A DNA stretch of 64,000 bases from Sistotremastrum niveocremeum HHB9708 (lineage: Eukaryota > Basidiomycota > Agaricomycetes > Sistotremastrales > Sistotremastraceae), in assembly GCA_001630475.1 (NCBI GenBank), contig KV419407.1, positions 62,001 through 126,000 on the forward strand, written 5' to 3'. Position 1 is the first letter of the stretch. Every line of letters starts with the position of its first letter. The notes below the pieces were generated by a model, which worked only from the letters and a program-made list of their open reading frames with translations, was not told where the DNA came from and made no database searches. This document shows, one piece after another, positions 6,159 through 55,021 of the stretch. The position numbers were made by a program, and so were the translations under genes.

Positions 6159-7935
6159 TCAGTCAGATAAATAGTCTTCTTCAAATTCCACAAAATTAGC
6201 GGGAAATATTCCCTTCTTCCCATTGACACGGCCAGTCCACCTAAAGCATCTAAGTATGGAGGATACTCTGAGAGTTGAACGGACACACCAATCGTGACTG
6301 CTACCAGTCTTCTCAACAATGATGATGACATCTCCTTTCTTGAAAGAGAGGTCTCCACTCTGCTGTGCGTTGTAGTCGTATAAAGCAATAGCTCGCCCAT
6401 TTTTCCCTGGTGGCTCGGATATGCTGGGCGCCCTTACAGGAGCGATTGACGGCTTCGACAGAGATCTCGCGACATTCGGCGGCGATTCCATGCTATTAAT
6501 GGAGGTAGGATTAAACGAGTACGACGCTGGTGCGGGTATAGTGTCGTCGTGGAAGACATGTGTGGCGGGGACTGGGCTGAAAACACCTGAAAACTGAGAA
6601 GAGTGGTCTAATGATTGATGGAATGGAGGCAGGGAATTGAAAGGGTTGTCCTGAGCATAGGTCTGTGCAGTCGTGGGTGAAGGAATCGGATCAACATCCA
6701 CCAAGGTTGATTGTCGACGTTGCGCAGATTCGGGCTGAAACTTGGTTCTGAAATCAAAACTCCTGGACCTCGATTTGGCCTTGGTAATCGCATCAGCTTG
6801 CTGGAATGGGTCGTCTTCAGGAATGTCCACGTTGAAATAGTTGGCTGACGTGGATGATGATGACCGGGATTTGTTCCACGAAACCGGCGGGAAAGGCGAG
6901 GTCAAGGAGCGAGTGTTCTTCTTCCGCGAAAGCGACGGCGGTAGCTCGGACCCTGGACTGGGGATGCCCTCAAATGCGTACCCAGTATCTGCGACTTTGT
7001 CTTGTACCCAATTTCGCCCTCCTGGTAAGCCTGTACAACTTTCCAAAGCAGCGATTAAGGGGCCGGCCCACTTCGGTACAGGATGGACCCCACTGAGGAG
7101 TTCTTTAGCGGTGACATCTTGTTCATATGCCAAAGCATTGGCATCTTGGCGTTCGACAATCACGGATCCCTCTACGGAAATGCCGCCGAACAGTCCGCGA
7201 GTTTTTGAGTATGAATATGTGGCGGACATCTTCCCGCTTGTGTTGATCGATCCACTAGCTTCTCCATTTCTCCCGAGCGGCCCTACGGCGACACTCAGGT
7301 TTGTGCCCAGGGTGACCGAGCCTGCGGACATGAAAGATCTCTACAATGACCCCATTTAACGATGCGATGGGAGCAAGCATCTTGTTCGCACTCACTACGG
7401 CCTGTGTCGGTGCTATTAGTGCGGTGCATTCAATGAACGACTGCAGCTGCGTACGGATTTCGAGTTCAGAACGATCAATACATCGGTCAGTTCAGCACCG
7501 GCCTGCGTGCCAATACCCATTCCAGCTGTTCCGATAGCACTGGGTGGACTCCAGCCTGCACAAGTGAGACAATGCAACCACATGGAGAGAGAAGATACGT
7601 ACTCCCATCCTCTAGCTTCGCAATCACGATTCCGCTTCCAGCCCGGGCGGACACAAGGAACCCAGCTTTAAGAACGCTGTAGATGGCAAAACCGCGAGCA
7701 TTCTCTAAAACAGAACGAGGAATGACCTGAAATATCGCATAAGGATTTCGTTCTTCATAAGATCAGGACCGATGCCGAAGACATACACCATCCAGTCCAT
7801 TGTTGCCACTGTCCACAAAAGACTTGAGAATCTTAGCGGCCTTTGCACATTCCTACACTTTTGTGAGTAAACTGAATTATAGGGGAGGTCGTGCTCTACC
7901 TTGGGCAATGGCTGTGGTAGTGCGCTCAGCTTCAT
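6159..7935 (-). CDS. YSC84: SYLF plus SH3 domain actin-patch protein (Ysc84/Lsb3/SH3YL1 family)
   Basis: Seven exons (7935-7900, 7852-7787, 7726-7603, 7555-7455, 7401-7396, 7340-6289, 6240-6159) give 488 residues. Residues 1 to about 215 form a SYLF (DUF500) domain with the hallmarks ECAKAAKIL, SVLENARGFAIYSV, KAGFLVSARAGSG, TAGMGIGTQAGAELTD and AGSVTLGTNLSVAVGPLGRN. In the family this domain binds phosphoinositides and F-actin at endocytic patches. A Ser/Pro-rich linker follows, then a C-terminal SH3 domain (ALYDYNAQQSGDLSFKKGD to GIFPANFVEF) that in yeast binds Las17-type proline motifs. Two oddities. Exon 5 is only six bases (GCCGTA); with it the protein reads NSKSAVRSFMSAGS, matching the family. 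The last intron (6288-6241, 48 bases) lies in the SH3 domain, is in frame and has no stop. Confidence 0.92.
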
Positions 7936-40507: not shown

Positions 40508-43500
40508 ATGTCGAAAGTCCCTCCAACGCGTCATAATACAACGCCCGAGCCAGTCGCTAACCAGGACAGAAGTGTCAATGCCGCCAGTTTCTACGCATCT
40601 CGCAAGTCTAATATCTCGGATCCCGCTATTGCATCGCGCCTCTCGAGTTCGGAGGGCTCGAGACACACAACGTACAGCGCTCCGATTCCTGTTCCATCTC
40701 ACACCACAGCACCGCGTTCTAATACCTTACTTTCGTCTGACATTACGCAAAGCATTCGAGATTCCGAGGCTCAGAACCCCAGCACTGACGATGAAATGCC
40801 GGATCTGATAGCAGAGGATGCTCCTGCCTGGGGTGATAAATCCACATTCCCTTGGACTCCATTGACGGGTTTCGATTCCACCGTCAATATCGACGGCCGT
40901 GACGATGAAGAAGAGATGAAGTGGTGGAATAGCGATGTTCGAGAGAGGAAGAAGCGGCCTGGACCTGGCATGCTGCCACCATTGCTTGCGCAAGAGGTTC
41001 GCAATGCCAACCCATCATTGCACGCCGTGAATGCCACGGTGCCACCCATCGCCAATCGACAGGCGTCGTCGCCCAGCTCTCCCCCAAGCGTGTCCCCTCC
41101 TATTGGTTCTAGCCACGCAACTTCGCCGCCGACCTTCGAAGACATTCAGAAGGCTTCACCCCACCCGAACGCGTACTTTTGCCCCGAGCATTACTCATGG
41201 GTCGTTGTTTCCTGGAAAAGCTCACAACTTACACCCCAAGTGATACCATCATTCAAAGGCACCCTTCCCGACCAGGACCGCAGACGAACGAGGCCATCTT
41301 GTTTGGATGATCCTCACAAGCCTAACCGTACCCATCACTTTCATCATTACCCGCAAGCAGTATCCTCAACAACCCTTCATCCTCCCATCACCTTATTCCG
41401 CGGGAAAACCCGTTCGTCTTCACCCGCAATCACGAAGTCCCGTGGAGACACTGCGGCTTCCAGTCCTAGTCCTGTAGAAGAGACACAGGCCGCCCCCTCA
41501 AACGTCTTGCTTGATCTTTACGTCTGCTGCCAATGCTCTTTCTCTGCACTTGTATCAGGTGCAATTCAGGGCGTTATTCCTCCAAAACACGTCGAGTCGT
41601 TGACTAGACTTCGCCGCGAGACTCCACTACCGAACATAAACGGCCAGACTAGCGTAGTGATGGCATGGGAAGTAATATTAAGGTTATCTTCTTTTTCCAT
41701 AGCATTCCACATAATCTAAAGCAATTCTAGAATCATAGAGAATAATCTATGGAAAGGTGAAGTTCGACGAGTCTCCACGACAGGAAAGGCATTCCAAAAA
41801 CTTGGCTGGAACTCAACTGTGTCAGTGAGCTCTTTGATGTTTTCTATGCCTCTCTCACGAATCAAATAGCATGCGAATATTCGATTCTCTGGGCTATGAT
41901 CTGCCAGATCCCAAATCGGAAGATTCGACTATTGGCCCGCCTGATTTAGACCCTTCAAACCCGGGTGCCAGTGAGAACAAGGCAAAGCTTCTTCGAGCCT
42001 GGCTCGAGATTGGCGCCTATCTATCTGATTACAGACAGCGTCATGGTATGCTCGTTTTCGATTCCCCTGCTGGTAATAGTTGACTGTATAGAACGGCAGT
42101 CAACGAACTTAGAGGGCATACCCCTTACTCCACTGCCGTGCAGATTTCGGATGCCGATCCTAAGATTCGGAAAGCAATCGGAGCGCATCAGGACCAAAGT
42201 CGGCTTGCATGATCTTTCTTAGACTTGAGCTCATACCCTGTCAGTTCCTCAAGGTGCATCAGGATTGGAATCTGTGGTCACTGCCATGAGTGCCCAGTTC
42301 AAAGAATTGGGAATGGCATATTCCACATTCTCGCCCGGTAACGTTCAGGCTGGTAAAAATCTGTGCCTGACTGACTGGTAGGGCTAGAGTTGCTGGAGTT
42401 TGCTTATCGCTCTCAGTGCAGATGCGATCCTGCCAAGACACCTGTCTACTTTGGCCATTTGACACACATCACCACATTCATTGCAAATATTCAACCAACC
42501 CAAGGAACGGCTCTCGAGAATTTGGTGGCCTTGGAAACTTCACGGGGCAGATGGGGCCCTGATGCGATAAGAACGTCCTACACTGCACTTGGGTTTGGAG
42601 CCCAGCATGTTCTCCGCGTGGATTGGAATGAAGAGATCGACGACGATTTCACGTTTAACGCATGGAAGGACGCTGTACGCCGAACATGGGTAGACTCCAC
42701 GTCAAGTAGTCAAAAACGAAGGGACCTCAACGAAGCCCTGCGGATATTGGCTGAGAGTCGGGGTAGCTCCAAGCTCCTTTCATTGCTCGATCAGCACAAG
42801 GGCGATATGGACCCAGACCAGGCCTATAGGACCATAGATGTTCCTCAGCAGACTGAGGATGGGATGTTGTTGATGGTGTTCCAAATGCGTGTTGGTTGAT
42901 TGCTTTCTCCAGAGTCTACGAGATTCATAAATTGCCTTCAGGTCGATGAAATGCCTTCGCAGGTTGAATCTATGAGACAAGCGCTGGCGGTTATCGCGGA
43001 TCAAAGGGATAGCAAACGCATCCGTACCTATCTTGAGACCGGTTCTGATCGTAAGCGTCTTGCTCTACATTAAACTGATTCTGACGATCTTTCAGCTGGA
43101 GACATATCCCATGATCTGCCTCCAGAGTGGCCTCGGGGACTGAATCAACTCGGGAACACTTGTTATCTGAACTCTCTGCGTAAGTCGTTCGTATCGTTAT
43201 CAGGTCGCGTTCCTTAGCTTCTCTAGTTCAATATTTCTATACCATCAAGGACCTTCGCGAAGCAATTGTGCCCTTGAAGGCGATGGAAAACGAGAAATGG
43301 AGCGACGATGATCTTAAGCGACACAGAGTGGGGGGTAGAATGGTCACGAGGCGGGAGATCATGAGATCGAGAAAATGTTCGCAATGATTTCCTCGAGTGT
43401 CAAGAACTCATCTCATGTGCTTCTCAGTTGTCTCTCAGTTATCCTCCCTGTTCACGGACCTAGAGTGTAGCACCGTGCCTTCGGTTACACCGTCTCTGGA

Positions 43501-45137
43501 GCTTGCTAAGCTAGCCCTGGTCACTTCAAAAGACGAAGAGGAAGATGAACACGACCTTAGCAAGTCGGGTACGGAATCATCTAACAGTACCGACGCGACC
43601 CTCGTGGATGAACCTCTGCCTGTGTCTGGTTCAGTTTTACCATTATCTATACTTGGGAAAAGACCACGCGAAGGCGAGAGTGCAGCCACCCAAACCCCGA
43701 AGATCTCTGGCACCTCGGAATCTATTGTCAAAGATTCTCAGGAAGGCCCACAAGGAACCGCGGATGCAGAGATGCATGATGGAACTACGGACAATTCACG
43801 TTCGAAGCCCCCTCCTTTACCACCCCGCCGTAAAACGGAACCAACATCTGACTCCTTAATGATGTTTGGTAAGAGGCTAATTCTCAAAGTATCCTCTTTT
43901 GTGACAATTACAAAACAGGCAAGCAACATGATGTCGCAGAATGTATGGACAACTGTCTTTTCCAAATCGAAGCCGCGTTGCTTCGGTCTGACGACGATGC
44001 AGAGGTCGGCGGTGCCAGTCAAAAGAGTCTTGTGAAGAGGTGAATAGCACTCTCAGTTGTACATCGGGTACTAATCACACCGACGATAGACTGTTTTATG
44101 GCAAGATACGACAGCGCATCACACCACCCGTTTCAGATCGCCCTGTTCGATCTACGACACATGAACGTGATGATTTCTTCTCCCATCTCCCGGTTAACGT
44201 TTCGGAGGAAGGTTTCGATTTATACGACGGCTTGAGTGGATACTTCGATGATAGTGTCGAGTTCCAAGGCCATAAGGCCAAAATGGAAGTCACTCTTCTT
44301 GATTTACCTCCGGTTCTCCAAATTCAACTCCAGGTCTGTCACAAGTGTTTACCGCACTGGATTCCCACGGCTAAATTTCTATTAGCGCGTTCAATTCAAC
44401 CGAGTTCTACAACAAGCGTATAAATCCCAAGAATATGTCAAATTCGAGGAGAATCTATATGTCGATCGGTTCCTGGAGTCGGCCAATCCCTCGAAAAAGC
44501 AACGATCAAAGGTGATACAGAGCGAATTATCACGCTGTCGCGATCGAATATATGCTTTAGTGAAGGATGAAGTAAGTGAACAGCATGATAAGTCTATACT
44601 ACGCTCATGGTGCCCATGAATAGCAAGCTCCTTTCGCAGAACATCTCGATGTGACCTCGAAATTCCTGATCAAACACTCATTCCTCGATACCACTCAGGA
44701 ACTGAGTGAATTCTTGTCCCAAGAGCGTGAAGCTGTGACGGCTGAGCTCGGGAAGCTTCGCGAAGAAATCAAGCGACATAAAGAGGATTTAGAAGCTTTG
44801 TGGGCCGACGAACGATCGGCAGCTTACGAGCTGACATCGGTGTTCATTCACCGAGGGTCGTCTCCCTCCTGGGGACACTACTTCTTTTATGCGCGCTGTT
44901 TACCAGATCGACCAGACTCATGGTTCAAGATGAACGACAGCGAGGTGACTATGGTCTCGAAGGATGAAGTGTTGGCGGATAGCACGGGGTCGACGGCGAA
45001 TCCGTATCTGGTACGAGACGTATATATCCTGTGCTGGCACCTTCTAACCTATGAGGATGTAGTTGGTGTATGCCAGGAAAGATGCACAAGTCATCCAAAC
45101 AGCGAAACGCGATCCCGTTTCAGATGAGAAGAGCTGA
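40508..45137 (+). CDS. UBP2: Ubiquitin carboxyl-terminal hydrolase UBP2-like
   Basis: Large multi-exon deubiquitinase gene. The first about 400 residues are low-complexity. The middle is the UBP2-specific helical region (LLEFAYRSQCRCDPAKTPVY, DDFTFNAWKDAVRRTW, ALRILAESRGSSKLLSLL). The USP catalytic domain starts with the Cys box GLNQLGNTCYLNSLLQYFY, continues with KQHDVAECMDNCLFQIE (the QQDxxE-type box), FYGKIRQRI, SVEFQGHKAKMEVTLLDLPP, FNRVLQQAYKSQEYVKFEE, a charged coiled segment, and ends with the His box GSSPSWGHYFFYARCLPD and NPYLLVYARKD. Yeast Ubp2 trims K63-linked chains and opposes the Rsp5 ligase at endosomes. Catalytic Cys and His are present, so it should be active. Stop 45135-45137. 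Exon borders in the 41680-42390 part are approximate. Confidence 0.87.
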
Positions 45138-45702: not shown

Positions 45703-47098
45703 ATGTTCAGGACCGCACTTTCTCGAACTGCTCTGGTGAGCTCACTTACAGTAACTTTATTCACACTCCTGTTGACGTGCTTTGGTACCTAGCGCAACAC
45801 TCGTCGCTACGCGACCTCTGCGCCTGCTTCCAGTGGATCAAACTGGGCCATTTATCTTGCTGGTGCAGGTGCTGCTGGTCTGGGAGCCTACGTTTACCTT
45901 GGTCAAACACCTGAAACGCCTAAAAAGCCAATACAAGAGAAGAGTCCTTTGGACCCCAAAAACTTCGTGGATTTCAAGCTCAAGAAAGTTGAGCCATACA
46001 ACCACAACACCGCAAAGTATGCTCTGTACCAAACCTCCTACATATACGCACGTTGACATGCTATCGCACTCAGATTCATCTTTGAGCTGCCCGAGGATCA
46101 AGCCTCCTTGCTACCAGTTGCTTCTTGCGTGGTCGTGAAAGCTTCGGACCCAGAGGCCTTGAAAGATAGCAAAGGCAAACCCATCATCCGCCCTTACACT
46201 CCGGTTTCTCCCTCAGATGCTCCCGGAGAGCTTGCCTTCCTCATCAAAAAATATGACTCCGGAAACGCATCCAAGTATATACACGAACTCAAAGTAGGAG
46301 ACTCGTTGGCTATCAAGGGCCCGATTGCCAAGTTTGACTTCAAAAGTATGCTCACATATTCTCTTGAGCAACCCTAATGTTCCGTGATATCTCTAGTCAA
46401 TCAGTTTGATGAAGTGGGCTTGATTGGTGGTGGAAGTGGAATGTGAGTCGACAATCCAACTACCTCGGGCGCTTCCTGATGCGCGCATACAGCACTCCAT
46501 TATATCAGGTTTGCCCGGGGCCGTTGAGAGTACCCTTTCCTCCGCTCAAAAATGAAACTTTTCCGTAGATCGTGGAATACGCTTTATCGAAGAAGGACAA
46601 CAAGACCAAATTCAAACTCATTTTTGCGAATGAGACGGAGGCGGACATCCTTTTGCGAGAAGAATTCGATTCTATGAAAAAGAAATACCCCGATACATTT
46701 GACGTCGTATATGTCGTTACGAAACCGGAAAAACCCTGGAAAGGTACGAGGCATGCTGTCTGACTCTTCGCTTTCTCAAACGCGGGACAGGCAAAACTGG
46801 ATATGTGACCAAGGAGATAATCAAAGAAACTGTGGCTTCACCTGATGCTGGAGACAAGGTCAAACTGTTTATATGTGGTAAGTCATGGATGGAGATCATG
46901 GGAATGAAGAACGCCATTAACCGGCCATCTAGGACCCCCAGGTCAAGTTGCCGCAGTAGCAGGCAAAAAAGATGGCATGAAACAAGGAGAACTGGGAGGG
47001 ATACTAAAAGAACTGGGATATACTTCGGATCAAGTTCGTCTCTCACTACTGCCTACTCTCTGACCGCTGAATATATGTCGCAGGTGTTCAAATTTTAA
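45703..47098 (+). CDS. MCR1: Mitochondrial NADH-cytochrome b5 reductase MCR1
   Basis: FAD enzyme moving electrons from NADH to cytochrome b5; the Mcr1 form sits in the outer membrane and intermembrane space. Exon 1 (MFRTALSRTAL) and the start of exon 2 (RNTRRYATSAPASS) form a mitochondrial presequence, followed by a membrane helix (WAIYLAGAGAAGLGAYVYLG). FAD-binding motif RPYTPVS is followed by GELAFLIKKYDSGNASKYIH (isoalloxazine/phosphate loop). The NADH domain has EVGLIGGGSGITPLYQIVEY, then IFANETEADILLREE and, at the end, VKLFICGPPGQVAAVAG. Length, about 330 residues, fits. Intron 1 covers 45736-45799. The motifs CGPPG and GGGSGITP identify the family firmly. Confidence 0.94.
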
Positions 47099-47185: not shown

Positions 47186-48390
47186 TCATATACCAAGTGA
47201 ACTCGACGAATGAGAGCCCCATAGGCCTAACTTTCGAAGTACCCCCATCAAACGCATGTAACTCCCTGGTGAGGAAGAAACACCCTTCCCTTTCACACCG
47301 ACGTACGGCGCAAGATCACCCGACTTTAGCCCAGCTTCGTAATCGGCAAGATATTTGGCAATGACGGGAGCAGCGAGCCCCGTCACGACAGCGATCTGCA
47401 AAGCCAATTGGGCGGATCCCAAATCCTCATTTGCTCCCAGAAGCTCATGCAGAACGCCAGTGAAAGTTTGCAAGCGACCGGCATTGAGCGACTTGGGCTC
47501 CATAAAATACCTGTACTGCCGACTCATGAAAATCACCCGAGGGTCTGATACAGAAGCGGTCGTGGAGGGATGGGAAAGGTCGAGCCCAACTCTGGGAGAC
47601 GTATGAATCGTGGGGAATTTGACTCTGGCATGCATGGGAGCCAAAGAAAGATAGGATTGATTGGCACCAACGTTTTCACGCAAAGCGAAAACATTGTCCT
47701 TCCATAGGTTCTGGACGAGGTCTGGAATTGAATGGCAAGAAAATGCCCGAAGAATTTCGTCCACTAGCAGCGAAGGGCCTGATATGACTTTGCCATCTTG
47801 AATTCTCCGTATAGTGCGGAACAAGATGCCGCCTTTAGTATGAGAGGCCGGATGATTAAAGTGTTGAGAAGAGACAGGATTCCCGAAAGTAATGTCTAAG
47901 CCCTTCCGTGTGCCTCCTCTGTAACCTCCGGCCGGGGAAGGTACATCTGGTCCTGAGGACGCAGCGCCTGGGGATCGACGAGGGACACGATGGAAATACC
48001 TACGTTGAGGTCAGCCACCAAGGCAAAACCATCAGGATAGAGATCGTACCAGTTACAGGAGCGTTTTTGTTCCTCTACACCATGGCAGAACGGGTCAATG
48101 TGAAATGAGCTATTCTGGAGGTAGAATTCGACCTCCAGCAGCTCGTAATCGACGTGCGTGCCATTGTGGTGTACGCGAAGGACTTGCGTATGCAGCAAAG
48201 TTCGGGCAAGGACAGAAAACCGCTCGCTGATCTGATCGTCGGTTGTGAGAGTGGTCAGATCTAACAAGGCGGGATCAAAAGCAGCCTTTGGTTTTGCGTT
48301 TGGTGCATGAACAGTCTTGGGCAGCTTTGAAGGCCGCTGGGATTGTTCGAAAGACAACGAATCAACAGCAGTCCTCTTGGATGTGCTCAT
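47186..48390 (-). CDS. Conserved fungal protein, distantly alkyladenine-glycosylase-like, unknown function
   Basis: Two exons (48390-48050, 47999-47186) give exactly 384 residues. After a basic start (SKRTAVDS), the core reads LARTLLHTQVLRVHHNGTHV, then LLEVEFYL, FHIDPFCHGVEEQKRSCNWY, GGYRGGTRKGLDITFG, GGILFRTIRRIQDGKVISGP, SLLVDEILRAF and a C-terminal helical part (LQLALQIAVVTGLAAP region). The order 'EVExYL ... DPF.H ... GGxLxR ... GPS' recalls 3-methyladenine/alkyladenine DNA glycosylase (EVEAYL with the catalytic Glu, then ILIRA, GPGKL). Only short motifs agree, so homology is uncertain. I cannot name the reaction. Stop codon 47186-47188; MCR1 ends 87 bases away on the other strand. Confidence 0.7.
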
Positions 48391-48623
48391 TCGATGTCCA
48401 CCTCAGGCCGCCTGGCATGGACGAGCTGAGACACGGAGGCAGATTGGCACTCATGGTCTTGTATTCCAGTACGGAAGGGTGAGCGCCCAATCAGTGGCCA
48501 GCGTCAGAAGTTAATTAGCGAGTGCATGAGAAATTGAGAATGATGTTGTACAACGTGTAGAAAATACAGCGGAGAACATGGCGGGAACGACGACGAGCAG
48601 GAGCAAAGGAGTGAAGAGAATGA

Positions 48624-50287
48624 CTAAGCAAGCTCAGTTTCTGTCTCCTCTTCAAGTTCAAGACTCGAAGAGTAACTATGGTAATCGCGAGTACTCGGCC
48701 TTGCACCCAGGTACACAGTCTCGCCACCTCGTAGACCGTGGTCCTTCAGCGTTTTATCGTTGCTTCGGATTTTGCCAAATATAATCAGGTTTTGTTGCTC
48801 CACGGGTATCCCTGTCGCCACTGCGACTTTGGCCTTTAAATTCGGGACAGTCGCCAGCTCCTCCACTTCAACCTCGAAGGTAACACCTTTCATGGTCCGG
48901 ACATTAAGAGTCAGGACTCGCGAACCTGTAACGGGCGTGAGGCTAAAAAAAGCGATAAAATCCTCACATACCCAGATACAAGACATCATGAGGACGCAAA
49001 CCGTGGTCCCACAAAGATGACGAATCGCTAAGGCCTTTTCCATCAATCGAAAAACGGTAATGTTCAAGTGACATCTTCTCTTCCAGCTCAATCCTCCGTC
49101 GCAAATCAGACAGCCTCGAAAAGGGATCAAATGTTAGATCGTCGAACGACTTGAACCATGTCTTGACCACGATAGGAATATCGACAGCTGTTGGAAACAG
49201 AATCAGAACGTTCATAGACTATTCGATGCAAGAGCACCATACCCATGACGACGGTGGTCCCAGTAATTATTCCGTAATCTCGGACTGGTTCGTCTCCCAA
49301 GACGCGCCGCCCATTGCAAACCAGCTTTTGCTGGGCAACTTCAATCCCAGTGATATCTTGGATCTTTGTTTTGAGCTGAAGAACATGATCGCCCGTTTCG
49401 ATCCGGAGGTTGAAACTCCTGTCATTTTCCAGACCGAACGTTCGAATGTTGATATGAAACAGCTTTGGAGGTGCTGTTAGTGACGTCTTCAGAAGGTCAA
49501 CCCAAGAATGAACCATGTGTAAAACGTACCGAGCCTCAAAATAGTTCCAGGCTCTACTTCTGACTGTTCCAGAGTGGCATGTTCATTGAGTTCTTCTCCG
49601 TTTTGATAGAATGCGAGATCCCGTGGGTCAGGAATGTTCGGATCCAACTGCATGTAGTCCCTGACATTGGCGACACGATCGAACGGTCGACACACAACTG
49701 GATAAAGATCCGCATCAATCTTCACGAAGATTTGATAGCTGTGGGATACTTGAGATGCCACCAGGTCAGAACATCGCTGTCAAAGAAGAAACATGCGTAC
49801 ATTCCAAAGTTAAAGCCTGCCCGTCCAAAGGATATTCACAAATCATCTTGGCATCTTCCAGTTCGGTGTCTCTAAGTAACAACGTCTGAAGCTTCGGAAC
49901 AATTCCTTCTTCTGCAGCAATTGTCTTCTTGATCTGACCAACTGTGTGGCGCGGGTTGACCTCGATAGCAAACGAGGTCCCATCGGAGACATGAAAGGTT
50001 ATCCGCGATAGATTGATATCAGGAGTACCTGCATGGTCGTTAATCCACAGCAACTCCAACTACAAACGCGACGTACCAACATGTATGGTAACACCGTCCT
50101 GGTACGAGTAGTGTGAGACGGGTCGATTGTTCTGCAACTCGACGCCATCCAGAGTCAAAGACGTGATAGGGCGCTTTATATTCATCTGCTCTTGAACTTT
50201 CTTTTTCAAGTCCGAAATCTTGGTGCTCGGAGAGACATTGTCCAGGACCAAGGTCTTCCCCAGAAACGTCTGCACTGAGATTCGCAT
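48624..50287 (-). CDS. Protein of six tandem ubiquitin-like domains
   Basis: Six exons (50287-50077, 50028-49801, 49748-49530, 49473-49243, 49187-48972, 48925-48624) sum to exactly 468 residues. Each exon encodes one ubiquitin-like domain of 70-77 residues: UBL1 1-70, UBL2 71-146, UBL3 147-219, UBL4 220-296, UBL5 297-368, UBL6 369-442, then a 26-residue acidic Ser/Glu tail. Best matches to ubiquitin: UBL1 RISVQTFLGKTLVL; UBL4 LKTKIQDITGIEVAQQKLV and VRDYGIITGTTVVMG; UBL6 LKAKVAVATGIPVEQQNLI, FGKIRSNDKTLKDHGL. Domains end in a single Gly or none (HVG, YLG), never Gly-Gly, so the protein should not be cleaved like polyubiquitin or conjugated. Lys equivalent to K48 survives in UBL5 and UBL6. All introns (46-56 bases) are phase 1 at domain borders. 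Role unknown; a rigid multivalent scaffold for ubiquitin-binding factors is a guess. Confidence 0.9.
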
Positions 50288-50580: not shown

Positions 50581-53500
50581 TTAAACTTCAGGCGCTGGTG
50601 CACTACCTTTGCCCGGTCTAGTACTCGTCAAATGTGACGGTCCTTGCTTGCCTCCTCGCCCTCTCCCTCTCCCTCTACTCCATCCTCCAGCAGACTTGCG
50701 CTCCTTTTGTGGAGCCGCAAGCAGTTCGATAGCAGCGGCTTCCTGTCGAAGCCGTTCTTCTTCCTCTTGCCACCAGCGCAGGAATTCAGCCTCCTGACGT
50801 TTGGCTTCTTCCTGCTGCTGTATATCCCTCATGCTCAATTTAGGCTTCGACAAGCCTGCCTTCTGCTCTCGTTGTTGCTGCTGAATCGCAGTAAACGAGC
50901 TCGTGGTCGGTGAATCCTGGGGAACAAGTTCAGAGAGGACTCCTTGAGCCCATGCGCTTCCCGCTGAATCACTACAAGTTGCGTATTAGCAATATGAACA
51001 TTCAGGACAAGCCAATCTCGCCAATACTCACGAAGCGATTCGCCTCGGCTTGGGTGTGTTGGTTGCGGGAGTGAGAAGACGGACTGGAGTGATTACAGGC
51101 CCGAGTCCAGCAATGGGGGCTGCCGAGCCACCAACAGAAGTTCGACGCTGTTCTGAGAGCGGCGTTCGTCCCGCTTGAGTCTTTGGCGTCGAAGGAGAGG
51201 TAAGAGGAGTCTTGAAGGTAGGTTGAGACGGGCCCCGAGGGGTGGATGGCGCAGAATGTCCAGGAGAGTCTTGTTGTGAAGACGCTCTTGGGACAAAATG
51301 TGGAGTTGACACCGCCTTTCCCACTCTTTTCGCGCTTGCGGTCTCGGCCATTATCGCTTTCAAGTCAACTCTATTTCATGCGTCAATTGCATAGAAATGG
51401 TGAATGTTCGATGAAGGCTTACCTATTGGCATCTCGGTGAGAACTCGCCTTCCAAACGGGTGGCGGCGTCTGTTCTACGGGTGGCAGGGACAATGGTGGA
51501 ATGTCCGACAAGTTCTCCTCGTCCATTGTGAAGATGTCGGTCGAATTCTGCTCGGCGGCATTTTGTTGCGGGCTACTTGAGGGCGATCTGCATTTCTGAA
51601 CAGCACTGAACTTCAGTGGTCCTCCCCCAGTCGGAGACACTGGTGATATTTTTGGCGAAGCACGGTTGAGAGCCCGTGTACTCGGCACTATAGGCTGTGG
51701 AATGTCTTCCGATGCAAGGAAGTCGGCCCATTTCACGAGCAGGTCCTGGACGAACCTATCAGTTCGTGTGAACGGAGACTTGGTTGACTGGTGGAGTCTG
51801 ATGGCCGAAGCTAACTCTCGTAGTAGATCAAGAGGCATATCGTCCAAGAGGCGATTCTCCAACATCGTTTCCATGTTGGCAGCGATGAATTCGTGCAATC
51901 TATTCTGTAGAGGAACGACGCGGAAATGACTTGCATCGGCCAATAGAGAGCAAACATTCCACAGCTCAACGAATTGCAAAATGACGTTGGAGCAAACGAG
52001 CACAAAGTGCTCCAAGAGTAACTCGTTCTATAGCCATTGTCATTAGATGTTTCATATTTTTCAGGAGCAGTATACGCACAGCAATGTCGAGGACTTCAAA
52101 CACGAAGTCAATGGCATCCTCGCGTGACGCGACGAAGTCTACAGAAGGTTTAGCAAATTCAAACCCACCGAGAGTGATGCGCACCTAGCACATGAAACAA
52201 ACTATGTTCGTTCCCAGTGTACATATGGTCGAAGACGAGAGAAGCAGCTCGCCATTTTCTATGTCTCAACGACACGCGTATAATGTTGTTCGACTCCCGG
52301 CGCAATTTTGTCCATGCTTCTTCGTCGAAAAAGCTGGCGAAGAAAGGAGAACGGGCGCGTAGGATTGCAGAGTGAAACAGCGCAGAGCGATCGCAGAATT
52401 GAATTTCAATATCAGGTTGCGAGATATGAGAACTCAGTCCTGGCTGCGCAAGACACGTCTGAAATAGAGCGCTTTGATCGATCTTGAGAGAAGGCGTAAT
52501 TGGTTTCACGCTCGTTCCCGCTAGCGCCCCCTCAAGGCTCGGCAATTGGAGGAGATTTGCCAATTGCTGTAATTCGGCTTTAACAAGCACGGCCTTCACG
52601 CCAACCGAAGCCAGTTCACCAGCCAGCCTACGCAGTATCCGTGGATCCCAGATGGTAAGGACCATGTCCGTGTAAATGAAGGTGAGAAGGCAAAGCACTG
52701 AAAAGGGAGAGTGGTTGATATGCAGCCCGAGTTTCGTGAGGGTAATTGAGGAGTCTCTGGATGACTGCCCGGAGAGGATCTCGGAGAGGATAAGAGATCG
52801 GCTGGTCAGAATAGTACGATGGACGGGTATAGACATGGGGCCGGCCTTGACCAGGAGGTTGCTTCCTAAGCGATGCTCGAGCGAATAGTTCTTGGAGACT
52901 TTGGATTGTGCGAGAACCTTGATCAGTCTTCGCACCTCCCGAATCTGAAGAGCAACCACGGTGTTGTCGCCTTCGTCGTCCTCTGCGCCTTCAGCCAACT
53001 CAGGAGTCGGGGGCAACCCCCGGTCCGTAGGCGATGAAGCTTCGTCCTGTAGTGTGAACCATGGCCGAATGCGACCAAGATCCTGCCCCACCGTTGCAGG
53101 TGTTGAATCAAGACGCTGAGCCTGCTTAACAACTCGTAACGCTGCAAAGGCACCCGCGCTGTTCGCAGACACTCTGACTACCCTCTGAACAAAGGGGATG
53201 CGCTGGAATTTGAACGCCTTGCCACCAGTCCCCTTGGCATTGCGACTTCGTACGAAGACATGTCCCGATTCCGTGCAAAGAATGATAGAACCATCGGAAC
53301 CCAAAGCGACATCCTAGATAATACTCTTAGTATCGATTGCGAGGTTATGCGTATGGTGGAACTTGCCTTCACAGCACTAAATTGCTTACGAAGGGCCCAC
53401 ACTCTCTGGGGTTTGATACCTGCGGTAGCCCTATCTCGTCCTTTGCTGCCATCCATCTCATTCGGAGAAGGAGGAGTAAACGTGTATAAATCGCCCATAG

Positions 53501-55021
53501 ATGAGAGACACGCAAACACCTCGTCACAAGTCGTGACCTTCGTCATCATGGCTTTATTGATAGCCTGGGGTGGCCTGTAAACCGAAAACTCCGCGGGGAA
53601 GGAGTGTACGGGGAACACAATCCTAGTGTGAATGTCGTTGTAGAAGCAAATCACCTCCCTCGACTCTAGGAGGCAGGTCATCGCGGAATCCTAGAGCTGA
53701 ACATTAGATAAGGTACCTAAGACACTCAGTGTACGTACAGACAGCGCTACATCCAAGACTCGGAGGGTCACAGCTGAGACAACACGAGGCAGTATCTGGA
53801 CTGGTTGTGCATTCTTGTCATACCCGAGTTGGCCTCCGTTCGTTCCCCACGTGAACAAGGCATCAGCAGTCCAACAAGCGCTTGCTGTCTTGGCTGCAGC
53901 AATTCCAAGGACAATCTCTTTTTTGAGGAGTCCGTGTACCTTTCTGGGAACGCTTTGTATAGGCTCCTCTCCTTTCGGAATTTCCAGAACATAGCCCAAC
54001 TGAGAAAATCGATTGAGGCCCCAGCTCAGGACATCACCGTTTGACGATAGGGCAAGCGAGTGATCCTGGCCTGCTGCGATCTTGGATATCTTGTGGGATA
54101 AACCGCTGATAGGTAAGAGACTGTACTGAGTGTTTTGCATAATCCCAAGGCGGCCTCCACTCCCGAACCCACAGACCCGAACGTTCGCTCTCGACTCCGA
54201 CGTCAAAACAACTAGAAGGAGGTTATGGATTATTGCGTTCCTGACACGGTGAGATCTTACTGGTATGCAGTTTGGCCATAGTTATGTCGCTAAAGGTGAT
54301 CGGGGTGAACCTTTCCTTGATGGGTTTCGCTGGATCATCTTCTGTCTTCAGCAGAACCTGGTCAGGGTTCGAGCGATCCTCAGCATCACCGTGACCCAGT
54401 GTAGCATTGCTAAAGGAAGAAAAATCAGAGGATTGGAAAAGATTGGCAAGGGATTCGCATACCGGTTGGTACCCCAGGTAAAGAGCTCTGCCGTATCGAA
54501 GGTTGGTTCAGGCTTCGTCCCATTTACAGTAGAATTATATAAATCGAAGGCAGTGTAGCCTTCGTAGTCCTTGAGCGAGATATCGATATCGTCCCGCTGA
54601 AGAAGGAGGATGCTTTGACTGATCAACACGGGATCACAGCAGACGGGGCAAATTTGACATACCAAGCTGGCAAATTCCCGACATACATAGCTCTATGCAA
54701 AGCTGACCAATGACTCTCCATGTCCTGAATATTGACGTTGATGCCAGGGTGGGCCAATAGCATTCGCACATATTCAAGGGCGCCGGCGTCCACACTGCTG
54801 CACGCTAAATGAAGCACAGTCCTTCCAAACGAATCTCGTGCGTTGACGTCGACGACGGGCGCATTTGACAAGGGAGAAGGACGGGTCCAAGACCTGCCTC
54901 CACTACTGCTCATGGTGTTCTGAGTGCCATAGTTGGATCTCGAATTCCCCAAGACCTTCTGGAACGCCTGCTGGTTCCGGAATATATAGTGCACATGGAG
55001 CACATTCTGATGGGTATTCAT
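50581..55021 (-). CDS. IBTK-like protein: ankyrin, RCC1, two BTB domains
   Basis: One large multi-exon gene, roughly 1,250 residues. Order from the N-terminus: ankyrin repeats (NARDSFGRTVLHLACSS, WSALHRAMYVGN, LKDYEGYTAFDLYN); an RCC1 propeller (ELFTWGTNRNATLGHGD, VCGFGSGGRLGI, AAGQDHSLALSSNGDVLSWG, ALFTWGTNGGQLGYD); BTB1 (GSNLLVKAGPMSIPVHRTIL); BTB2 (IEIQFCDRSALFHSAILRAR, SPFFASFFDEEAW, FDHMYTGNE); a helical BACK-like part; a Ser/Pro-rich linker; and a C-terminal helix LSMRDIQQQEEAKRQEAEFL with an RG-rich patch. Ankyrin-RCC1-BTB-BTB is the IBTK layout. Animal IBTK is a cullin-3 adaptor, so a role in substrate ubiquitination is likely. The start at 55021 is the first usable ATG. It lies 294 bases upstream of the six-UBL gene on the same strand. 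Confidence 0.87.

What the first reader, a model, noticed from the sequence alone, without database searches (positions are those of the whole stretch)
48624..50287. One gene encodes six different ubiquitin-like domains in tandem
Six consecutive ubiquitin-fold domains, each about as long as ubiquitin (70-77 residues), make up almost the whole 468-residue protein. They are highly divergent from each other, so this is not polyubiquitin. None ends in Gly-Gly, so processing or conjugation is unlikely. I know of no described fungal protein with six such domains and nothing else except a short acidic tail. It may be a multivalent mimic or scaffold for ubiquitin-binding proteins.
Basis: partly seen in the sequence, partly recalled or inferred. 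Interest (0 to 1): 0.88.

Follow-up and report, generated by a model that had tools for sequence, protein, structure and literature searches.

The report
Six-ubiquitin-like-domain protein, one exon each
A fungal-type gene encodes six different ubiquitin-shaped domains joined end to end, each in its own exon and without the tail normally needed to be cut apart or attached to other proteins, so it is probably a fixed docking rod rather than a ubiquitin source.

Summary
On the minus strand, 50287-48624 splices into six exons (five GT..AG introns of 46-56 bp) encoding exactly 468 aa, 52.8 kDa. Each exon is one ubiquitin-like domain (UBL); all five introns are phase 1 and lie in domain junctions.

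Four of six domains pass Pfam's ubiquitin cut-off alone; D5 is below it (20.2 bits), D3 is not significant (11.7 bits, E 0.24). D3 modelled with its five sisters is a confident beta-grasp (pLDDT 93; TMq 0.80-0.86 to the 50 listed PDB matches). Domains are 8-32% identical to each other, 25-37% to ubiquitin. None has Gly-Gly; linkers are 4-6 residues where polyubiquitin has 8.

So it is not polyubiquitin, nor, on sequence, a conjugated modifier. No domain keeps ubiquitin's own Ile44-patch residues, though D4, D6 and perhaps D2 stay largely hydrophobic there. That somewhat favours a non-covalent adaptor with differing surfaces, as in USP7's five-UBL tail, over a ubiquitin mimic. Function is inferred. 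No relatives were found, but no searchable collection is one of fungal genomes, so rarity is untested. New variant of a known kind.

The parts
50077..50287 (-). Exon 1, UBL domain D1 (residues 1-70); start Met aligns with ubiquitin Met1
   Evidence: Splice model; PF00240 41.4 bits, E 1.2e-10; 36% identical to ubiquitin
50029..50076 (-). Intron 1, 48 bp, phase 1, in the D1/D2 junction
   Evidence: GTACGT..CAG; phase and position
49801..50028 (-). Exon 2, UBL domain D2 (residues 72-146)
   Evidence: PF00240 43.4 bits, E 3e-11; 26% identical to ubiquitin
49749..49800 (-). Intron 2, 52 bp, phase 1, in the D2/D3 junction
   Evidence: GTACGC..AAG
49530..49748 (-). Exon 3, UBL domain D3 (residues 148-219), the weakest match to ubiquitin profiles
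   Evidence: PF00240 only 11.7 bits, E 0.24; leave-one-out 7.3 bits, 0 of 2000 shuffles as high; AlphaFold2 with sister domains pLDDT 93.0; Foldseek PDB TMq 0.80-0.86 among the 50 listed hits
49474..49529 (-). Intron 3, 56 bp, phase 1, in the D3/D4 junction
   Evidence: GTACGT..CAG
49243..49473 (-). Exon 4, UBL domain D4 (residues 221-296)
   Evidence: PF00240 49.1 bits, E 4.7e-13; 29% identical to ubiquitin
49188..49242 (-). Intron 4, 55 bp, phase 1, in the D4/D5 junction
   Evidence: GTATGG..CAG
48972..49187 (-). Exon 5, UBL domain D5 (residues 298-368)
   Evidence: PF00240 20.2 bits, E 5.1e-4, below Pfam's cut-off; leave-one-out 18.5 bits, 0 of 2000 shuffles as high
48926..48971 (-). Intron 5, 46 bp, phase 1, in the D5/D6 junction
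   Evidence: GTATGT..CAG
48624..48925 (-). Exon 6, UBL domain D6 (residues 370-441, closest to ubiquitin) plus C-terminal tail and stop
   Evidence: PF00240 56.7 bits, E 2.1e-15; 37% identical to ubiquitin
48627..48707 (-). Tail of 27 residues (442-468), acidic near its end, no Gly-Gly
   Evidence: Translation; lies beyond the PF00240 match that ends at residue 441

Best explanation
The gene encodes a single-chain protein of six divergent ubiquitin-fold domains joined by very short linkers (sequence shown; fold shown by profile for four, supported by profile for D5 and by a model for D3). It arose by repeated duplication of one symmetric phase-1 exon carrying one ubiquitin-like domain, followed by long independent divergence (inferred from the gene structure). 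It is unlikely to be processed into monomers or conjugated in the ubiquitin way, because no domain has the Gly-Gly tail (absence shown, consequence inferred). It most likely works as a non-covalent adaptor or docking rod in which the domains present different surfaces to different partners, probably in the ubiquitin/proteasome system, as the five mutually dissimilar UBLs of USP7 do. D6 and D4 stay closest to ubiquitin at position 44; D1, D3 and D5 have changed most there (partners and pathway inferred, not shown).
For: Splice model and intact frame. Codon usage is best in the proposed frame among the three sense frames for 6 of 6 exons, and among all six frames for 5 of 6 (exon 5: 0.041 against 0.042 in an antisense frame). 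Pfam, leave-one-out profiles, AlphaFold2 on D3 and Foldseek for the fold. 84 of 90 residues at 15 core positions are hydrophobic (counting Cys and Tyr), while the Ile44-patch residues differ from domain to domain. All five introns are phase 1 and lie in the domain junctions; chance of that position under uniform placement about 2.7e-8, with junction limits that I set by hand after seeing the alignment. Linkers of 4-6 residues against 8 in polyubiquitin (same hand-set limits). USP7 precedent: five UBLs under 15% identical to one another, with the ICP0-binding residues found only in Ubl2 (PMC4457826, abstract and passages seen).
Against: No binding partner, expression or conservation data. No relative was found to show purifying selection on the array or on surface patches (viral, prokaryotic and plasmid collections only). 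D3 and D5 fall below Pfam's cut-off alone, and D3 left out is not significant among the window's ORFs. The D3 model used its sister domains as the alignment, which may push it toward the common fold. The whole 468-residue chain was not folded, so domain packing is unknown. D4 (F/V/V/A) and D6 (M/I/Y/G) keep a largely hydrophobic Ile44-like patch, as does D2 (F/L/L/L) in the aligner's register, which leaves room for plain ubiquitin mimicry.
Confidence: 0.5

Rival explanations
1. A hard-wired, uncleavable ubiquitin-chain mimic: the six domains together imitate linear polyubiquitin and engage ubiquitin receptors or deubiquitinases as a decoy.
For: Head-to-tail order like linear polyubiquitin. The top PDB match of D1-D5 taken singly is a ubiquitin or polyubiquitin chain (D6 was not searched singly), and the full protein's best match, over its D6 region, is polyubiquitin. 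D2, D4 and D6 keep an aliphatic residue (L, V, I) at position 44. A Ubp2-like deubiquitinase gene lies about 3.5 kb away.
Against: No domain keeps ubiquitin's own Leu8/Ile44/His68/Val70; position 44 is T, Y and S in D1, D3 and D5; Lys48 is kept only in D5 and D6 and Lys63 in none; linkers are 2-4 residues shorter than in polyubiquitin. PDB is dominated by ubiquitin, so the top match carries little weight.
Confidence: 0.25
2. A proteasome-targeting shuttle or regulator: some UBLs dock on proteasome receptors, as those of Rad23 and Dsk2 do (recalled), and the others hold cargo.
For: NCBIfam's Rad23 model hits four stretches (84.5 bits in all), the best one on the first 75 of its 381 positions. 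One of the 50 listed structures for D3 is the Dsk2 UBL. The tail may be unstructured (inferred).
Against: The Rad23 score is far under its cut-off of 207.3, and no UBA or other cargo domain is among the Pfam families listed.
Confidence: 0.12
3. A decayed or neutrally drifting polyubiquitin duplicate with no function.
For: High divergence between repeats, loss of Gly-Gly, no relatives available to show constraint.
Against: Six open exons with five intact introns, coding-like codon usage, and 84 of 90 core residues still hydrophobic while other positions vary, which drift would not be expected to preserve.
Confidence: 0.08
4. A gene-model artefact: several separate single-UBL genes joined on paper.
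For: No transcript data.
Against: Exons 2-6 have no Met in the ubiquitin Met1 place, each intron is canonical and frame-keeping, and the only stop in the spliced frame is at the end.
Confidence: 0.05

Closest known systems
Polyubiquitin genes (UBI4, UBB, UBC type)
   Same: Head-to-tail ubiquitin-fold domains and little else but a short tail; best sequence match in PDB
   Different: Repeats here are 8-32% identical, lack Gly75-Gly76, have shorter linkers, and there is one intron at each junction
USP7 C-terminal array of five UBLs
   Same: Several mutually dissimilar UBLs in one chain (under 15% identity in USP7, PMC4457826, passage seen)
   Different: USP7 is a deubiquitinase with TRAF and catalytic domains; here no enzyme domain is seen, and no USP7 family is among the 14 Pfam families listed at E up to 5
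ISG15, FAT10, OASL (tandem two-UBL proteins)
   Same: Fused divergent UBLs; D2 also matches FAT10 (UBD) chains in PDB (E 5.9e-8 and 3e-7)
   Different: Two UBLs, not six; ISG15 and FAT10 are conjugated through a C-terminal Gly-Gly (recalled), absent here
Bacterial PolyUbl proteins
   Same: Tandem UBLs in one protein
   Different: Typically two to three domains, in operons with E2-like and JAB genes (PMC11354881, passage seen); this gene has introns and fungal-type neighbours
Yeast UBL-domain proteins Rad23, Dsk2, Ddi1, Ubp6, Mdy2
   Same: Integral UBLs in fungal proteins
   Different: [quoted passage not shown] here six UBLs and a short tail

Membership tests
Ubiquitin-like superfamily (beta-grasp, PF00240) | Sequence profile match | tested here: met
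   Full protein E 5.9e-60; 4 of 6 exons above the cut-off alone, D5 and D3 below it
Ubiquitin-like superfamily (beta-grasp, PF00240) | Beta-grasp fold | tested here: met
   Met for D3 only, modelled with sister domains; D6 alone gave a low-confidence model; D1, D2, D4 and D5 were not folded
Polyubiquitin | Near-identical tandem repeats | tested here: not met
   Repeats 8-32% identical
Polyubiquitin | Gly-Gly processing site after each repeat | tested here: not met
   In none of the six domains
Conjugated ubiquitin-like modifier | C-terminal or exposable Gly-Gly | tested here: not met
   Protein ends in an acidic tail, and no Gly-Gly stands at the end of any domain; cleavage or conjugation itself was not assayed
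USP7-type UBL array | USP7 UBL families and a USP catalytic domain in the same chain | tested here: not met
   Not among the 14 Pfam families listed at E up to 5
Rad23/Dsk2 UBL-UBA shuttles | UBA domain besides UBL | tested here: not met
   No UBA among the Pfam families listed; NCBIfam rad23 84.5 bits against a cut-off of 207.3
Non-covalent multi-UBL adaptor (works like) | Binds partners through individual UBL surfaces | not testable with these tools
   Needs binding or interaction data

The most novel reading that the evidence does not exclude
A genetically encoded, uncleavable hetero-ubiquitin chain: six domains of fixed order, each with its own docking surface, serving the fungus as a dedicated assembly rail for ubiquitin-system proteins, possibly including the deubiquitinase and the BTB/RCC1 protein encoded beside it.
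Probability: 0.2. Interest if true: 0.75.

Novelty: new variant of a known kind. Interest (0 to 1): 0.5.

Why it matters
Ubiquitin chains owe their meaning to repetition of one identical unit; here the unit has been fixed into one polypeptide and each copy let go its own way. If the array is conserved, it is a natural set of six ubiquitin-fold variants whose surfaces and partners can be mapped one by one. It also shows how such an array can grow: one symmetric phase-1 exon per domain. The nearest studied case I saw, the USP7 tail, belongs to an enzyme; a free-standing array would let the adaptor role be studied alone. How rare such proteins are in fungi was not testable here.

Tried and rejected
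Relatives: viral contigs with the six-domain alignment could not be searched, no stretch being conserved enough; with the whole protein, no pattern match. Genome contigs (prokaryotes): 17 pattern matches, none a relative by tblastn. Plasmid DNA: no match. None of these is a collection of fungal genomes, so the blanks mean little. No genome is held for the window.

Defence families (PADLOC): none at E up to 1. No tandem DNA repeats at 46-53 kb, as expected for such diverged copies. No clear seventh UBL in the window: outside the gene the best six-frame hit to the six-domain profile was +53778-54041 at E 0.49; the same stretch reached E 0.094 with the profile that leaves D6 out, and I did not follow it further.

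D6 single-sequence model: too poor to use. VIA-align library: not installed. Literature, judged from titles and the starts of abstracts: searches returned 0 papers. One search listed 40 of 43, 25 of 58, 2 of 2, 8 of 8, 20 of 5,172 and the same single paper; none named a fungal multi-UBL protein. Passages were looked up in five papers; none was read whole. One further paper was not held. One Pfam batch of six stretches failed on my own wrong frame and was not repeated.

Artefact and pseudogene readings were considered and set low (see rivals). I did not fold the spliced full-length protein, because the description of structure prediction admits only proteins read directly from the window's DNA; I folded two single exons instead. 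I did not build a tree of the domains: about 70 columns at 8-32% identity would not be expected to resolve.

Full report
What is there. The gene lies on the minus strand, 50287 to 48624. Codon usage, scored against nine other ORF stretches of the window (1837 codons), favours the proposed frame over the other two sense frames in 6 of 6 exons, and over all six frames in 5 of 6; exon 5 has 0.041 against 0.042 in an antisense frame. There are no transcript data.

Six domains. Pfam's ubiquitin model matches the full protein at E 5.9e-60. Exon by exon it gives 41.4, 43.4, 11.7, 49.1, 20.2 and 56.7 bits against a curated cut-off of 25.4, so four of six pass alone, D5 is borderline (E 5.1e-4) and D3 is not significant (E 0.24). 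To test D3 and D5 without Pfam, I built profiles from five domains and scored the sixth: each of the six beat all of 2000 shuffles of itself, D3 only narrowly (7.3 bits, best shuffle 5.2). Against the window's 1657 six-frame stretches of 25 aa or more, D3 left out was not significant (E 0.84); the other five were, at E 2e-4 or better. For D3 the model is the main support: with its five sisters as alignment, AlphaFold2 gives pLDDT 93.0 and pTM 0.77, and Foldseek finds 280 PDB matches at E<=0.001, the 50 listed being mostly ubiquitin, ubiquitin variants, NEDD8/RUB1 and the UBLs of TINCR and Dsk2 (TMq 0.80-0.86). The sister alignment could bias that model toward the shared fold. D6 alone, with its tail, gave a poor model (pLDDT 56.3) with no match at E<=0.001; by sequence D6 is nevertheless the clearest domain. 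The other four domains were not folded.

Gene structure. This was not in the finding. Each exon is one domain. All five introns are phase 1 and fall in the junction after the last strand of the domain. With junction limits set by hand from the alignment (from the place of ubiquitin Leu69 to that of Gln2 in the next domain; for D2 one residue off the aligner's register), the chance of five uniformly placed introns falling one in each junction is about 2.7e-8. The limits were set after seeing the data, so the figure is a guide. The pattern is what duplication of one symmetric exon leaves. The domains are 8-32% identical to each other (all pairs but D4-D6 at most 24%) and 25-37% to ubiquitin; five of six are closer to ubiquitin than to any sister, D4 being the exception. 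Old duplications of a ubiquitin-like unit, no later homogenisation, and slow change in ubiquitin itself would explain this (inference).

What it is not. Polyubiquitin is cut at Gly75-Gly76 (PMC11354881, passage seen). No domain here ends in Gly-Gly, and the stretch between the last strand of one domain and the first of the next is 4-6 residues where polyubiquitin has 8. Processing and conjugation by the usual chemistry are therefore unlikely; mass spectrometry would decide. No UBA, USP, bacterial multi-ubiquitin or other enzyme family is among the 14 Pfam families listed up to E 5; NCBIfam's Rad23 model matches far below its cut-off (84.5 against 207.3 bits).

How it may work. In ubiquitin, Leu8, Ile44, His68 and Val70 form the main docking patch (recalled). 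At these places D1-D6 have F/F/gap/F/W/M, T/L/Y/V/S/I and H/L/R/V/Y/Y, and a junction residue instead of Val70: G, E or L, A, A, G, G. D2 depends on register: the aligner gives F/L/L/L; moving its end by one residue, which restores its core, gives F/L/T/E. So no domain keeps ubiquitin's own residues. D4 (F/V/V/A), D6 (M/I/Y/G) and perhaps D2 stay largely hydrophobic; D1, D3 and D5 carry Thr, Tyr and Ser at position 44. At 15 core positions 84 of 90 residues are hydrophobic, Cys and Tyr counted; three of the six exceptions are in D2 in the aligner's register. Cores kept and surfaces differing is what one expects of an adaptor whose beads serve different partners. USP7 is a studied example: five UBLs, under 15% identical to each other, with the key ICP0-binding residues only in Ubl2, through which GMPS and UHRF1 also bind (PMC4457826, abstract and passages seen). 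I therefore prefer a non-covalent docking rod over a mimic of ubiquitin chains, at about 0.5 against 0.25. The domain composition itself I hold at about 0.95.

Surroundings. Downstream on the same strand lies an unidentified gene (about 47.2-48.4 kb; two ORFs, no Pfam hit at E 0.01). Upstream on the same strand, from about 50.6 to at least 54.3 kb, are RCC1 and BTB exons, taken here as one gene, which recalls IBtk, a CUL3 adaptor (recalled). On the other strand, at about 42.4-45.1 kb, is a ubiquitin hydrolase with RPT repeats, Ubp2-like (RPT E 6.7e-12 and UCH E 3.7e-11; name recalled). Three ubiquitin-linked genes in about 12 kb is worth noting but may be chance; I did not test it. The neighbours (Ysc84-SH3 gene; RPT-UCH gene) and introns of about 50 bp fit a fungus; the class Agaricomycetes was not tested.

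What is missing. None of the collections searched is one of fungal genomes. The searches in viral, prokaryotic and plasmid sequence found no relative, which says nothing about fungi. Ten literature searches listed no fungal protein made of several divergent UBLs; three of the lists were cut (40 of 43, 25 of 58 and 20 of 5,172), I judged from titles and the starts of abstracts, and the library holds open-licence papers only.

Noticed in passing
window 42375-45124 (+): Ubp2-like ubiquitin carboxyl-terminal hydrolase (name recalled): RPT repeats (E 6.7e-12) and a UCH domain (E 3.7e-11) in separate exons, about 3.5 kb from the six-UBL gene.
   Followed up: partly
window 50581-54281 (-): RCC1-repeat and BTB exons, taken as one gene with an Arg-Gly-rich C-terminal exon, same strand and about 0.3 kb upstream of the six-UBL gene; looks like an IBtk-type CUL3 adaptor (name recalled; RCC1 and BTB hits).
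   Followed up: partly
window 47186-48402 (-): Same-strand gene just downstream; neither of its two long ORFs has a Pfam match at E 0.01.
   Followed up: no
window 45793-47040 (+): Oxidoreductase exons resembling a mitochondrial NADH-cytochrome b5 reductase (FAD_binding_6 on 46060-46377, E 8.2e-17; MCR1-like name recalled).
   Followed up: no
window 6162-7340 (-): Ysc84/SYLF domain followed by an SH3 domain in one ORF, an actin-patch-type protein of fungi (recalled).
   Followed up: no
window 53778-54041 (+): Weak match to the UBL profiles (E 0.49, E 0.094 with D6 left out), antisense to the RCC1 exon; probably chance.
   Followed up: no
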